Source: Magnetococcales bacterium
GTDB lineage: Bacteria > Pseudomonadota > Magnetococcia > Magnetococcales > JADFWU01
Assembly: GCA_015234045.1 (NCBI GenBank)
Contig: JADFWU010000076.1
Coordinates: forward strand, 1 to 10,725
DNA: 10,725 bases
Direction of reading: 5' to 3'
In this document: positions 3,086 to 6,428 of the stretch, piece by piece
Layout of the letters: the number at the start of each line of letters is the position of its first letter
How positions within the stretch are numbered: position 1 is the first letter of the stretch
The notes under the pieces: model-generated
The model's input: only the letters and a program-made list of their open reading frames with translations
Databases searched by the model: none
What the model was told of the DNA's origin: nothing
Position numbers and translations under genes: made by a program

Positions 3086-3358
3086 ATGGACATTACCAAG
3101 GATATCCGTTCTCTAACCGAATTTAAGCGTGACACTACACGTTTTATGTCCCATCTCAAAGAGAGCGGGCGACCTTCTGTATTGACCGTCAATGGTAAGC
3201 CTTCATTGGTTGTCATGGATGCTCAAGCGTGGCAGGAAGTACAGAATCAACTTGAATATGCAAGAACAGTTGTCGGAATTAGAAAGGGGCTGGAGCAAGC
3301 GCGTAAAGGGGAGGGGGGTGAAGCGGGAGCCTTCTTCGAGAAATTTGGTGCTGAGTAA
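3086..3358 (+). CDS. Type II antitoxin, Phd/YefM family
   Basis: This 90-residue protein has the N-terminal Phd/YefM DNA-binding fold. The pattern DIRSLTEFKRDTTRFMSHLK (residues 5-24), then SGRPSVLTVNGKPSLVVMD (27-45), is the family signature: a helix with conserved FKR, then a two-strand sheet with LTVNGKP. The rest (about 50-90) would be the toxin-neutralising tail. Family members bind their partner toxin and repress their own operon. The start ATG 3086 has GTGAGG at 3075-3080. The stop is two bases before the next ATG, the usual tight antitoxin-toxin arrangement. The antitoxin appears intact and full length, whereas its partner is truncated. It may now serve only as a DNA-binding protein or as protection against related toxins. 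Confidence 0.88.
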   Translation: MDITKDIRSLTEFKRDTTRFMSHLKESGRPSVLTVNGKPSLVVMDAQAWQEVQNQLEYARTVVGIRKGLEQARKGEGGEAGAFFEKFGAE

Positions 3359-3360
3359 TC

Positions 3361-3582
3361 ATGAAATGTTATCAGGTGATCATTACACCATTTGCTGGGG
3401 AGAATATCCAAACAGCATATCAATGGATTAAAGTTGAAAATCCAGTGTATGCGGAAAAATGGTTGAACGGTATTCGTGAAAAAAAGGGGCCACCGCCTCC
3501 GCACACAAGAGGAATAGATGGTGGCCATTTTCAAGCCTATCAACACACGTACAGACTGATTCCCTACCTTCAAGAGGGATAA
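3361..3582 (+). pseudogene. ParE/RelE-family toxin, truncated after about 40 residues
   Basis: The first 40 residues (KCYQVIITPFAGENIQTAY, then QWIKVENPVYAEKWLNGIRE) are a clear ParE/RelE-superfamily N-terminus: first strand plus the helical hairpin. From residue 41 the sequence becomes KKGPPPPHTRG and then a stretch to residue 73 with no resemblance to the family. The core beta strands and the C-terminal segment that carry toxicity are missing; full members have 90-105 residues. The break coincides with the run A7-G4 at 3479-3489. I looked for the missing C-terminus in the other frames just downstream and did not find it, so this is replacement or deletion rather than a simple frameshift. 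The gene starts two bases after the Phd stop. The product is almost certainly not an active toxin. Confidence 0.8.
3488..3526. repeat. Nested inverted repeat at the toxin break point
   Basis: GGCCACC (3488-3494) is the reverse complement of GGTGGCC (3520-3526). Inside it CCTC (3496-3499) can pair with GAGG (3509-3512). The structure begins just where the toxin homology ends, so it may mark the edge of an inserted or recombined segment. No run of T follows, so it is not a standard terminator. Confidence 0.5.
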
Positions 3583-4216: not shown

Positions 4217-4722
4217 TCATCGTATCCATTTATTGCCACAGACTGCACAACGCACATTATCAAAGAGAAGATTGCGCGTCCGCCCGTCCTTGCCCAACTT
4301 GTTCCGGATGGGCTTGTGCCTCTCGGGGCAGGCGATGACGCGGAGTTTATTCAAATCTAGCTCAAAATACCAAGTTCCAGTCCCTCCGGTGCTTGACCAG
4401 GTGTTGGAGCCATCAGTTCGACACCACGCTCCGCCGCTTCCAGTAGGTTGTCGCCGCTGTTGTAGGCAGTATCGGCGAAGAAATCTTTCGGGGCAATGCC
4501 ACGCTCGGCCAAATCATCCAACGCCGGAACCGTTGCATTGGCGTCACTCTCATGAGCCTGTTCTACCTCTACACGGGTGAGCATCTGAACTGGATTCTCA
4601 GCGGCACATGTTTCACTGATCTGGACTTGATAACCGACACCCTTATGGCCATCGTAGGTGGCGTCCGGATCGAACGGACTTTGCAGGCTGTCCGAGGCGA
4701 TCTCTTTGGGTGCCTTCTGTAC
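4217..4722 (-). pseudogene. IS1182-like DDE transposase remnant, truncated and frameshifted
   Basis: Read on the minus strand, the frame is open from 4722 to the TAG at 4359-4357. It includes DPDATYDGHKGVGYQVQISE, then a segment with ADTAYNSGDN and GVELMAPTPGQAP, which is the catalytic region of IS1182/IS4-type transposases with the conserved Asp of DTAYNSG. A second frame (4363 to 4217) continues the same protein: LRVIACPERHKPIRNK, KDGRTRNLLFDNVRC and CAVCG, the cysteine-containing part that follows in IS1182 members. Joining them requires loss of one base near 4357-4375. Only about 170 of the usual 450-500 residues remain. Both the N-terminal and C-terminal regions are absent, and no terminal inverted repeats of an element are visible. 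A stop (4725-4723) precedes the open frame. It is dead and records past IS traffic in the island. Confidence 0.8.
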
Positions 4723-4764: not shown

Positions 4765-4819
4765 AAAAAATACATTGAAAAAGTTTATTTAATCAATAAA
4801 CATTTTCAATGTATTTTTT
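4765..4819. terminator. AT-rich bidirectional terminator overlapping the toxin 3' end
   Basis: The arms 4765-4789 and 4795-4819 pair in 24 of 25 positions; only 4782/4802 (A/A) is mismatched. The loop is five bases (4790-4794). Each arm starts or ends with six A or T, so both strands present a stem followed by a U run, the form of an intrinsic terminator, though the stem has few G-C pairs. The TAA of the minus-strand toxin (4791-4789) sits at the loop, so the hairpin forms from the last toxin codons. It also separates the toxin gene from the transposase remnant. Confidence 0.7.
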
Positions 4820-5094
4820 GAATGCATGACCTGCTTAAATATTGCAATTACATGTAGCGTATTTGTTGTAGGGTAAATTTTATAGAATATTCTATATTTA
4901 TATTTGTTTTCTAATGCTTCGTATACACCTTTCTTATGTGTTTCCACTCCAGAATATGGAAAATCAGCTAATAATAGGATTCTGTTAAAGATGTGTTGGT
5001 TTGTTCTTGTATTTGCAAGAGGATTTTCTTTTTTGATGTCCTTCAGACTTTCTCTTAAAAAATCTCTAGCCTTTTGATCTACTTTGATTCTCAT
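4789..5094 (-). CDS. Type II toxin, RelE/ParE family
   Basis: This 101-residue basic protein has the length and pattern of the RelE/ParE superfamily. There is an N-terminal strand and helix with RIKVDQKARDFL, then a helix ending in RILLLADFPYSGVETHK (the usual L..FP..G turn). The core strands follow: YEALENKYKYRIFYKI, then LHVIAIFKQVMH. Members either cleave mRNA on the ribosome or poison gyrase; sequence alone does not tell which. I chose ATG 5094, which overlaps the antitoxin stop in TAATG, rather than the TTG two codons upstream. The GAGGG upstream is 13 bases away, so expression probably depends on translational coupling. Unlike the other two toxins in this island it shows no damage. Transcription probably ends in the hairpin at 4765-4819. 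Confidence 0.82.
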   Translation of the reverse strand: MRIKVDQKARDFLRESLKDIKKENPLANTRTNQHIFNRILLLADFPYSGVETHKKGVYEALENKYKYRIFYKIYPTTNTLHVIAIFKQVMHSKNTLKMFID

Positions 5095-5339
5095 TAGCAA
5101 TCAACACCCTCACCTCTAAAGTATGCTCTAACCTCTTCCTCGTTCAATCCCTCGCCTCGATCTGCTCGTTCAATAGCTTGGTCAATAAATTTCTTTTCAA
5201 GTTCTGTTAATGGTCTGCTCTGTGAGTGTCTTTGCTCTAGAGCCTGCCTAAAGGCATCTGTTGCAATTTCATTGATGTTTGATAGCTCTTGCTTTGCTCT
5301 TTGCCCTACATCATCAGGAATTTCAAGAGTGATGTTCAT
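5094..5339 (-). CDS. Type II antitoxin, small ribbon-helix-helix-like protein
   Basis: This 81-residue acidic protein begins with MNITLEIPDDVGQRAKQELS, a strand followed by helix as in ribbon-helix-helix antitoxins, and continues with helices to about residue 41. The C-terminal part (about 45-81) is rich in Glu and Arg, with ELEKKFIDQAIERADRGEGL. That fits an extended segment that wraps the partner toxin. The start ATG 5339 has AAGGTGACC just upstream, a good ribosome binding site. It is the first gene of a two-gene operon; its TAA overlaps the toxin ATG by one base. I cannot assign it to a named family with certainty, and the gene order supports the role more than the motif does. Confidence 0.75.
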   Translation of the reverse strand: MNITLEIPDDVGQRAKQELSNINEIATDAFRQALEQRHSQSRPLTELEKKFIDQAIERADRGEGLNEEEVRAYFRGEGVDC

Positions 5340-5551: not shown

Positions 5552-5580
5552 TTGAAACCTAACCCATAATGGGTTATTCT
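5552..5580 (+). promoter_or_regulatory. Promoter of mqsRA with a 17-bp palindromic operator
   Basis: TTGAAA (5552-5557), 17 bases, TATTCT (5575-5580) form a good promoter. The spacer contains the perfect palindrome TAACCCAT-A-ATGGGTTA (5560-5576), which reaches into the -10. The E. coli MqsA operator has TAACC and GGTTA half sites five bases apart; here the same half sites are seven bases apart. Binding by MqsA would block RNA polymerase. Just upstream CAATAGT (5524-5530) and ACTATTG (5544-5550) form another inverted repeat. The predicted start of transcription falls at or near ATG 5587, so the message may be leaderless. Confidence 0.65.
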
Positions 5581-5586
5581 AATCCG

Positions 5587-5920
5587 ATGACAAGACCTGT
5601 TCAAGACACCTGTTCACGACAAACGTAGACCCTCCTACGCATTGAAAACCATCAAGGCAGCTTTCCAATGCGGTGAAACCATGAATTCGACCACTTCCGC
5701 GATAGATGGGGCTGAGTTACTGGGAATGTTTGTAACAGATATGGTGAAGGTCATCCAGTCACTAACCAGTAAAAACTTCTACAAGTCAATGACATTCATG
5801 TGGAATAATAAACTTTGGCAGGATGTCTACTACGTTGATTGGCAAGGTGTATCACTCTATATCAAATTCACCTTAGATCATGATGGTGACTTGCTCCTGA
5901 TATCTTTTAAGGAGAAATGA
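5587..5920 (+). pseudogene. mqsR: MqsR-family mRNA interferase toxin, frame broken by a 13-bp duplication
   Basis: MqsR is a ribosome-independent mRNA interferase that cuts at GC-containing sites. The C-terminal half is plain: KNFYKSMTFMWNNKLWQDVY, then a strand containing SLYIKF, and LLISFKEK at the end. Lys, Gln, Tyr and Lys equivalent to E. coli K56, Q68, Y81 and K96 are present. The conserved N-terminus KRRPSYALKTIKA is encoded at 5621-5659. Its frame has no ATG or GTG after the TGA at 5588-5590, and its first TTG is at 5642. ATG 5587 lies in another frame and meets TAG 5626 after 13 codons. The two frames join exactly if one copy of the 13-bp tandem repeat at 5595-5620 is removed, giving MTRPVHDKRRPSYALK. 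Translation from TTG 5642 would drop about 14 conserved residues. As it stands the toxin is probably off, though loss of one copy would restore it. Confidence 0.8.
5595..5620. repeat. 13-bp tandem duplication behind the mqsR start codon
   Basis: ACCTGTTCAAGAC (5595-5607) is followed directly by ACCTGTTCACGAC (5608-5620); 12 of 13 bases agree. Thirteen is not a multiple of three, so the second copy shifts the reading frame between ATG 5587 and the body of mqsR. The one difference (A/C) shows the copies have begun to diverge, or that the duplication was imperfect. Confidence 0.92.
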
Positions 5921-5921
5921 G

Positions 5922-6428
5922 ATGTGTACCGAAGATAAAAAATGTGCAGTTTGTGGTGGTTCCCTAATCCATGAGGAACGGGATAGGACATGCCGGTATA
6001 CCAAAAAGACCCGCAATAAACACGAGGTGTATTCTGTTCAGTATCATCAGCCTGGGTTGTGGTGTACCACCTGTGGTGAAGGTTACATCAAGGGAGATGA
6101 CCAGAAGGTTCACAATGCCGTGTTTACAACGCTACGGTCTAAAGTAGAAGGTGTCCTCTCTCCAACTGAGATTCAATGTATTCGTGAAAATCTCGGACTA
6201 TCCAAACGTAAAGCAAGCCTTCTCATCGGTGGTGGGCATAACGCCTTTCAGAAATATGAAACCGGTGAGGTGATGCCTTCTAAAAGTACATCATCCCTTA
6301 TCCGTTTGTTAGGTGCTCGACCAGAACTGATAAGTGTCCTTACATCATTGCAACAGCCTCAGCAAGATAAACATATCCACCTTCCAAACCACCAGGGTGA
6401 TGTGAAAATTCAGACCGTTTCAGCCTGA
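5922..6428 (+). CDS. mqsA: MqsA-family antitoxin and autorepressor
   Basis: This 168-residue protein has the two-domain layout of MqsA. The N-terminal zinc-binding domain carries CAVC (Cys8, Cys11) and CTTC (Cys48, Cys51), matching the four Cys of E. coli MqsA. The C-terminal helix-turn-helix starts near residue 80 (LSPTEIQCIRENLGLSKRKA) and contains GGGHNAFQKYETG (103-115). Asn107 matches the DNA-reading Asn97 of E. coli, while Arg101 is Lys111 here. The start ATG 5922 has a perfect AAGGAG at 5909-5914 and lies one base after the mqsR stop, the toxin-first order typical of this family. It is about 35 residues longer than E. coli MqsA; the last 25 residues (QQPQQDK onward) are a tail I cannot explain. 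The antitoxin is intact although its toxin is out of frame. It may still repress through the palindrome at 5560-5576. Confidence 0.9.
   Translation: MCTEDKKCAVCGGSLIHEERDRTCRYTKKTRNKHEVYSVQYHQPGLWCTTCGEGYIKGDDQKVHNAVFTTLRSKVEGVLSPTEIQCIRENLGLSKRKASLLIGGGHNAFQKYETGEVMPSKSTSSLIRLLGARPELISVLTSLQQPQQDKHIHLPNHQGDVKIQTVSA

What the first reader, a model, noticed from the sequence alone, without database searches (positions are those of the whole stretch)
5587..5641. mqsR toxin switched off by a 13-bp tandem duplication that could revert
ATG 5587 leads into a frame that stops at TAG 5626. The conserved MqsR N-terminus KRRPSYALKTIKA is in a different frame with no normal start. Deleting one copy of the 13-bp repeat (5595-5620, 12/13 identical) joins the two into MTRPVHDKRRPSYALK and the full toxin. 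Duplication of 13 bp is the classic product of slippage and can be lost again, so this may be either a recent escape from toxicity or a low-frequency on/off switch. The antitoxin gene stays intact with its own strong ribosome binding site.
Basis: partly seen in the sequence, partly recalled or inferred. Interest (0 to 1): 0.75.

Follow-up and report, generated by a model that had tools for sequence, protein, structure and literature searches.

The report
Broken mqsR toxin beside intact antitoxin
A bacterial toxin-antitoxin pair has its toxin gene knocked out of frame by 25 extra bases, including a 13-base repeat, just after the start codon, while its antitoxin is kept; this is a common kind of gene decay and nothing here shows that it works as an on/off switch.

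Summary
The sequence observation is right. ATG 5587 runs into TAG 5626. The MqsR-coding frame lies +1 to it and has no ATG or GTG. A 13-bp imperfect tandem repeat (12/13) sits at 5595-5620. ATG 5587 is the ancestral start: its distance from the palindromic operator (19 nt) is the commonest among homologues. In 137 of 139 homologues with an alignable N-terminus, an ATG or GTG stands exactly 3-5 codons before the same residue. Against that pattern the window carries 25 extra nt (5593-5617), not just 13, so even a one-copy form would keep four codons that no homologue has. The rest of the toxin frame is clean: all four residues needed for E. coli MqsR toxicity, and 21 of 22 conserved columns. mqsA is intact with an AAGGAG site. 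In an even draw of the phylum, 12 of 30 classifiable mqsR copies are also broken. Of 13 broken copies held, 12 keep a near-full mqsA; 1 of 138 intact mqsR loci lacks one. So this is a decayed toxin with a retained antitoxin, a known kind. A reversible switch is possible by slippage (9-bp identity) but has no positive support. Reads were not available.

The parts
5560..5576 (.). Perfect 17-bp palindrome TAACCCATAATGGGTTA, probable MqsA operator over the mqsRA promoter
   Evidence: 8/8 arm pairs, centre 19 nt before ATG 5587; among 117 homologous loci with a palindrome the commonest centre-to-start distance is 19 (38 loci), with 18-21 in 92. Operator role inferred from P. putida and E. coli MqsA (PMC5422877).
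5587..5628 (+). Ancestral mqsR start codon and the short frame it now opens (13 codons, TAG at 5626)
   Evidence: Position relative to operator matches homologues; codon walk.
5593..5617 (+). 25 extra nt (1 mod 3) between M-T and D-K-R of the conserved start
   Evidence: Comparison with 137 homologues that start M[ED]KR or M[TSA][ED]KR; exact boundaries are an inference and may slide by a few bases. No second copy in the genome within 3 mismatches.
5595..5607 (+). First copy of the 13-bp repeat (ACCTGTTCAAGAC)
   Evidence: TRF
5608..5620 (+). Second copy of the 13-bp repeat (ACCTGTTCACGAC), 12/13 identical
   Evidence: TRF
5591..5920 (+). mqsR coding frame, open but without ATG or GTG start; MqsR_toxin domain at 5627-5914
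   Evidence: PF15723 E 6e-27, profile 1-95 of 95; 3hi2 match E 2.4e-13
5642..5644 (+). TTG, the only standard-type start codon in the toxin frame before the domain core; would drop the conserved P and no Shine-Dalgarno site precedes it
5909..5914 (+). AAGGAG ribosome-binding site of mqsA, inside the codons for the conserved MqsR C-terminus SFKEK
5922..6428 (+). mqsA antitoxin, full length (168 aa): CxxC zinc finger and HTH
   Evidence: PF15731 E 2.3e-24, TIGR03830 E 6.7e-30, match to E. coli MqsA 3gn5

Best explanation
This is an ordinary mqsRA toxin-antitoxin operon whose toxin gene has been inactivated at its 5' end. Ribosomes that start at the conserved ATG 5587 meet 25 extra nt, are put in the wrong frame and stop at TAG 5626 after 13 residues, so little or no MqsR is made. 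The insertion probably arose as a small in-frame gain of about 12 nt followed by a 13-bp tandem (slippage) duplication, or in one event. MqsA is still translated from its own AAGGAG site and probably goes on repressing its own promoter through the palindrome. Shown: frame, repeat, start-site orthology, intact antitoxin, recurrence of the pattern. Inferred: absence of toxin, order of the events, repression by MqsA.
For: ATG 5587 lies at the commonest distance from the operator among homologues. 137 of 139 alignable homologues have an ATG or GTG 3-5 codons before the equivalent residue; the other two (L015, L139) are broken as well. The toxin frame has no ATG or GTG, only CTG 5597 and TTG 5642 without a ribosome site. 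mqsA is full length. The same outcome recurs: 12 of 30 classifiable mqsR copies in the phylum draw are broken, and 12 of the 13 broken copies held have a near-full mqsA, while only 1 of 138 intact mqsR loci lacks one. Decay of chromosomal TA modules by nonsense or deletion is described in the literature (PMC7167474).
Against: The rest of the toxin frame shows no decay: 21 of 22 columns conserved at 85% or more are kept (128 intact homologues have 0-5 deviations), and residues equivalent to K56, Q68, Y81 and K96 are present. That fits either a recent lesion or some remaining translation from CTG 5597, TTG 5642 or by frameshifting. No expression data or reads were available.
Confidence: 0.85

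Rival explanations
1. Reversible switch: the 13-bp duplication is gained and lost by slippage often enough that a subpopulation makes toxin.
For: 13 bp is 1 mod 3, so loss of one unit would change the frame; the copies share 9 identical consecutive bases; the toxin frame is otherwise intact.
Against: Only two copies, one mismatch. None of the 13 other broken mqsR copies shows a tandem duplication as its lesion; those inspected are single-base frameshifts, stops or small deletions. No homologue has an N-terminal extension, so even the one-copy form would be unusual. No literature on slippage switching of TA toxins was found in the searches made.
Confidence: 0.05
2. The toxin is still made at a low level, from CTG 5597, by reinitiation at TTG 5642 after the stop at 5626, or by +1 frameshifting in 5591-5625.
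For: TTG 5642 lies about 14 nt after the stop codon in the toxin frame; the toxin frame is conserved.
Against: No Shine-Dalgarno site, no recognised +1 slippery codon in the overlap, no unusual RNA fold (z 0.11). A TTG start removes the conserved P (87% of homologues) and no homologue starts there.
Confidence: 0.07
3. The extra copy is an assembly or sequencing error in a draft genome.
For: The window is a whole 10.7-kb contig of a 117-contig draft; no same-family genome is held for comparison.
Against: 26 bp of imperfect repeat is shorter than ordinary reads, the copies differ at one base, and the excess over homologues is 25 nt rather than one clean unit.
Confidence: 0.04

Closest known systems
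MqsR/MqsA type II toxin-antitoxin system (E. coli ygiUT; P. putida PP_4205/PP_4204)
   Same: Gene order toxin then antitoxin, PF15723/PF15731 domains, toxicity residues, zinc finger plus HTH antitoxin, palindromic operator next to the mqsR start
   Different: Toxin start region interrupted by 25 nt, so no normal full-length toxin; operator core is ACCCATAATGGGT rather than ACCT-N3-AGGT
Decaying chromosomal TA modules (for example ccdO157 in E. coli, cited in PMC7167474)
   Same: Toxin lost by mutation, antitoxin reading frame kept
   Different: Lesion is a 5' insertion with a 13-bp tandem repeat rather than a nonsense or point mutation
Simple-repeat phase-variable genes (contingency loci; general knowledge)
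   Same: Frame depends on the number of copies of a tandem repeat near the start codon
   Different: Two imperfect copies only, no family-wide repeat tract, no evidence of variation

Membership tests
MqsRA toxin-antitoxin locus | MqsR domain over full profile | tested here: met
   PF15723 1-95/95, E 6e-27
MqsRA toxin-antitoxin locus | Residues needed for MqsR toxicity (K56, Q68, Y81, K96 of E. coli) | tested here: met
   Aligned with 3hi2; residue roles from PMC2791442
MqsRA toxin-antitoxin locus | Downstream MqsA with CxxC finger and HTH | tested here: met
MqsRA toxin-antitoxin locus | Toxin frame with a usable start codon at the conserved position | tested here: not met
   ATG 5587 is out of frame; no ATG or GTG in frame. 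Hence filed as a degenerate copy, not a working TA pair
MqsRA toxin-antitoxin locus | Palindromic operator bound by MqsA | tested here: inconclusive
   Perfect palindrome at the conserved distance; binding not testable here
Phase-variable (contingency) gene | Tandem repeat whose copy number sets the frame | tested here: met
   13-bp unit, 1 mod 3, between start and domain
Phase-variable (contingency) gene | Copy number varies within or between close strains | not testable with these tools
   No reads and no same-genus or same-family genome held
Phase-variable (contingency) gene | Repeat tract recurs in homologues | tested here: not met
   0 of 137 homologous starts carry an extension or repeat there

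The most novel reading that the evidence does not exclude
A chromosomal toxin-antitoxin toxin that is kept silent in most cells by a short tandem duplication and re-expressed in rare slippage revertants, giving heritable bet-hedging.
Probability: 0.04. Interest if true: 0.6.

Novelty: new member of a known kind. Interest (0 to 1): 0.2.

Why it matters
It shows that gene callers and domain searches can report a complete MqsR here although the gene has no normal start. It also adds a case to a clear asymmetry seen here: mqsR is often broken while mqsA is kept, as expected if toxins are freely lost but antitoxins are not, or if MqsA has a regulatory role of its own. If the switch reading were true it would be a new way to control a TA toxin, but nothing here supports that.

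Tried and rejected
Close relatives by DNA: none in plasmids or IMG/VR; the first scan of GTDB contigs with the window protein alone found none; no genome of the same family is held. The insert as a dispersed element: only one place in the genome within 3 mismatches and only one 9-base match elsewhere in the window. RNA structure around the start: no better than shuffled. Programmed +1 frameshift: no slippery codon in the overlap. Relaxed selection on the toxin protein: no sign, 1 deviation in 22 conserved columns, though the test is weak. Idea that broken mqsR is peculiar to this order: rejected, it is also common elsewhere in the phylum. One Pfam call failed because of stops in the chosen stretch, one look-up in a paper failed on a short term, and the Mine et al. 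2009 paper on ccdO157 decay is not held.

Full report
Observation. The window is a whole contig (C91, 10,725 bp) of a 117-contig draft genome of 3.65 Mb, with no genome of the same family held. Around the finding, a perfect palindrome TAACCCATAATGGGTTA (5560-5576) is followed by ATG 5587, whose frame ends at TAG 5626. The MqsR frame is open from 5591 to TGA 5918 and gives a full-profile Pfam match at 5627-5914 (E 6e-27). Between the two lies a 13-bp repeat, 12/13 identical, at 5595-5620, the best tandem repeat in the window. Markov versions of the window give 0.027 such units of 13-30 bp per window. The description is therefore accurate.

What the relatives show. I collected mqsR loci from the same order, an even draw of the phylum, GTDB contigs, IMG/VR and plasmids. 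In 137 of 139 loci whose N-terminus aligns, an ATG or GTG stands exactly 3, 4 or 5 codons before the residue equivalent to R at 5627 (1, 95 and 41 loci), giving mostly M[ED]KR-xP or M[TSA][ED]KR-xP. The two exceptions, L015 and L139, are themselves frameshifted. The palindrome centre lies 19 nt before the start in the commonest case (38 of 117), as it does here for ATG 5587, and 123 of 137 starts lack a Shine-Dalgarno-like four-mer, as here. So ATG 5587 is very probably the ancestral start. M-T and D-K-R of the conserved start are separated by 25 extra nt (5593-5617). This is an inference from alignment, because no close relative is available.

State of the toxin and antitoxin. The toxin frame keeps 21 of 22 columns conserved at 85% or more in 128 distinct intact homologues, within their normal range, and the positions matching K56, Q68, Y81 and K96 of E. 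coli MqsR (roles from PMC2791442). mqsA is full length with finger and HTH and an AAGGAG site at 5909-5914 that lies within the codons of the conserved SFKEK end of MqsR. The toxin frame has only CTG 5597 and TTG 5642 as possible starts, neither with a ribosome site.

How common this is. In the phylum draw I classified 30 mqsR places other than the window and two unresolved partial matches: 18 open and 12 broken by stops, frameshifts or deletions, several of them in genomes of one to three contigs. With L139 from IMG/VR there are 13 broken copies. Twelve of these have a near-full uninterrupted mqsA; L007 has lost part of it. Of 138 loci with intact mqsR, 137 have near-full mqsA. The lesions I inspected are mostly single-base frameshifts or stops, and none is a tandem duplication. 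Loss of the toxin with the antitoxin kept is therefore common, and decay of chromosomal TA modules is described (PMC7167474).

Mechanism. Most likely the toxin is off: initiation at ATG 5587 yields 13 residues. MqsA is still made and, by analogy with P. putida, where MqsA alone binds the palindrome and MqsR prevents binding (PMC5422877), probably represses its own promoter steadily. Slippage between the copies is possible in principle. Two copies with 9 bp of continuous identity are not a high-frequency switch (general knowledge), and no data on variation exist.

Verdict. Observation confirmed, with the lesion larger than stated. Interpretation partly supported: inactivation yes, switch unsupported. 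A degenerate member of a known system, of low interest.

Noticed in passing
phylum draw, (L005, L007, L008, L009, L015, L019, L023, L025, L026, L027, L030, L031): About 40% of classifiable mqsR copies are broken while mqsA is nearly always kept; the reverse was seen once (L047). L008 and L009, from different families, both have a one-base frameshift next to the WQDVY motif.
   Followed up: partly
4789-5339, minus strand: A second, apparently intact toxin-antitoxin pair: ParE-family toxin (PF05016) at 4789-5100 and a small upstream partner at 5094-5339 without a Pfam match.
   Followed up: no
3086-3582, plus strand: Phd/YefM antitoxin (3086-3358) followed by a 73-aa ORF (3361-3582) whose first 41 residues look like a RelE/ParE start by eye but give no Pfam match; possibly a third module with a truncated toxin.
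   Followed up: partly
4357-4644, minus strand: Fragment weakly resembling a DDE transposase (PF01609, E 0.007, below cut-off), suggesting that 3.0-6.4 kb is an island of mobile and toxin-antitoxin remnants.
   Followed up: partly
mqsR starts in homologues, e.g. L009 and L015: Many mqsR genes begin ATGGAAAAA; runs of 6-7 A right after the start (L015 is frameshifted beside one) could allow slippage at the DNA or RNA level.
   Followed up: no
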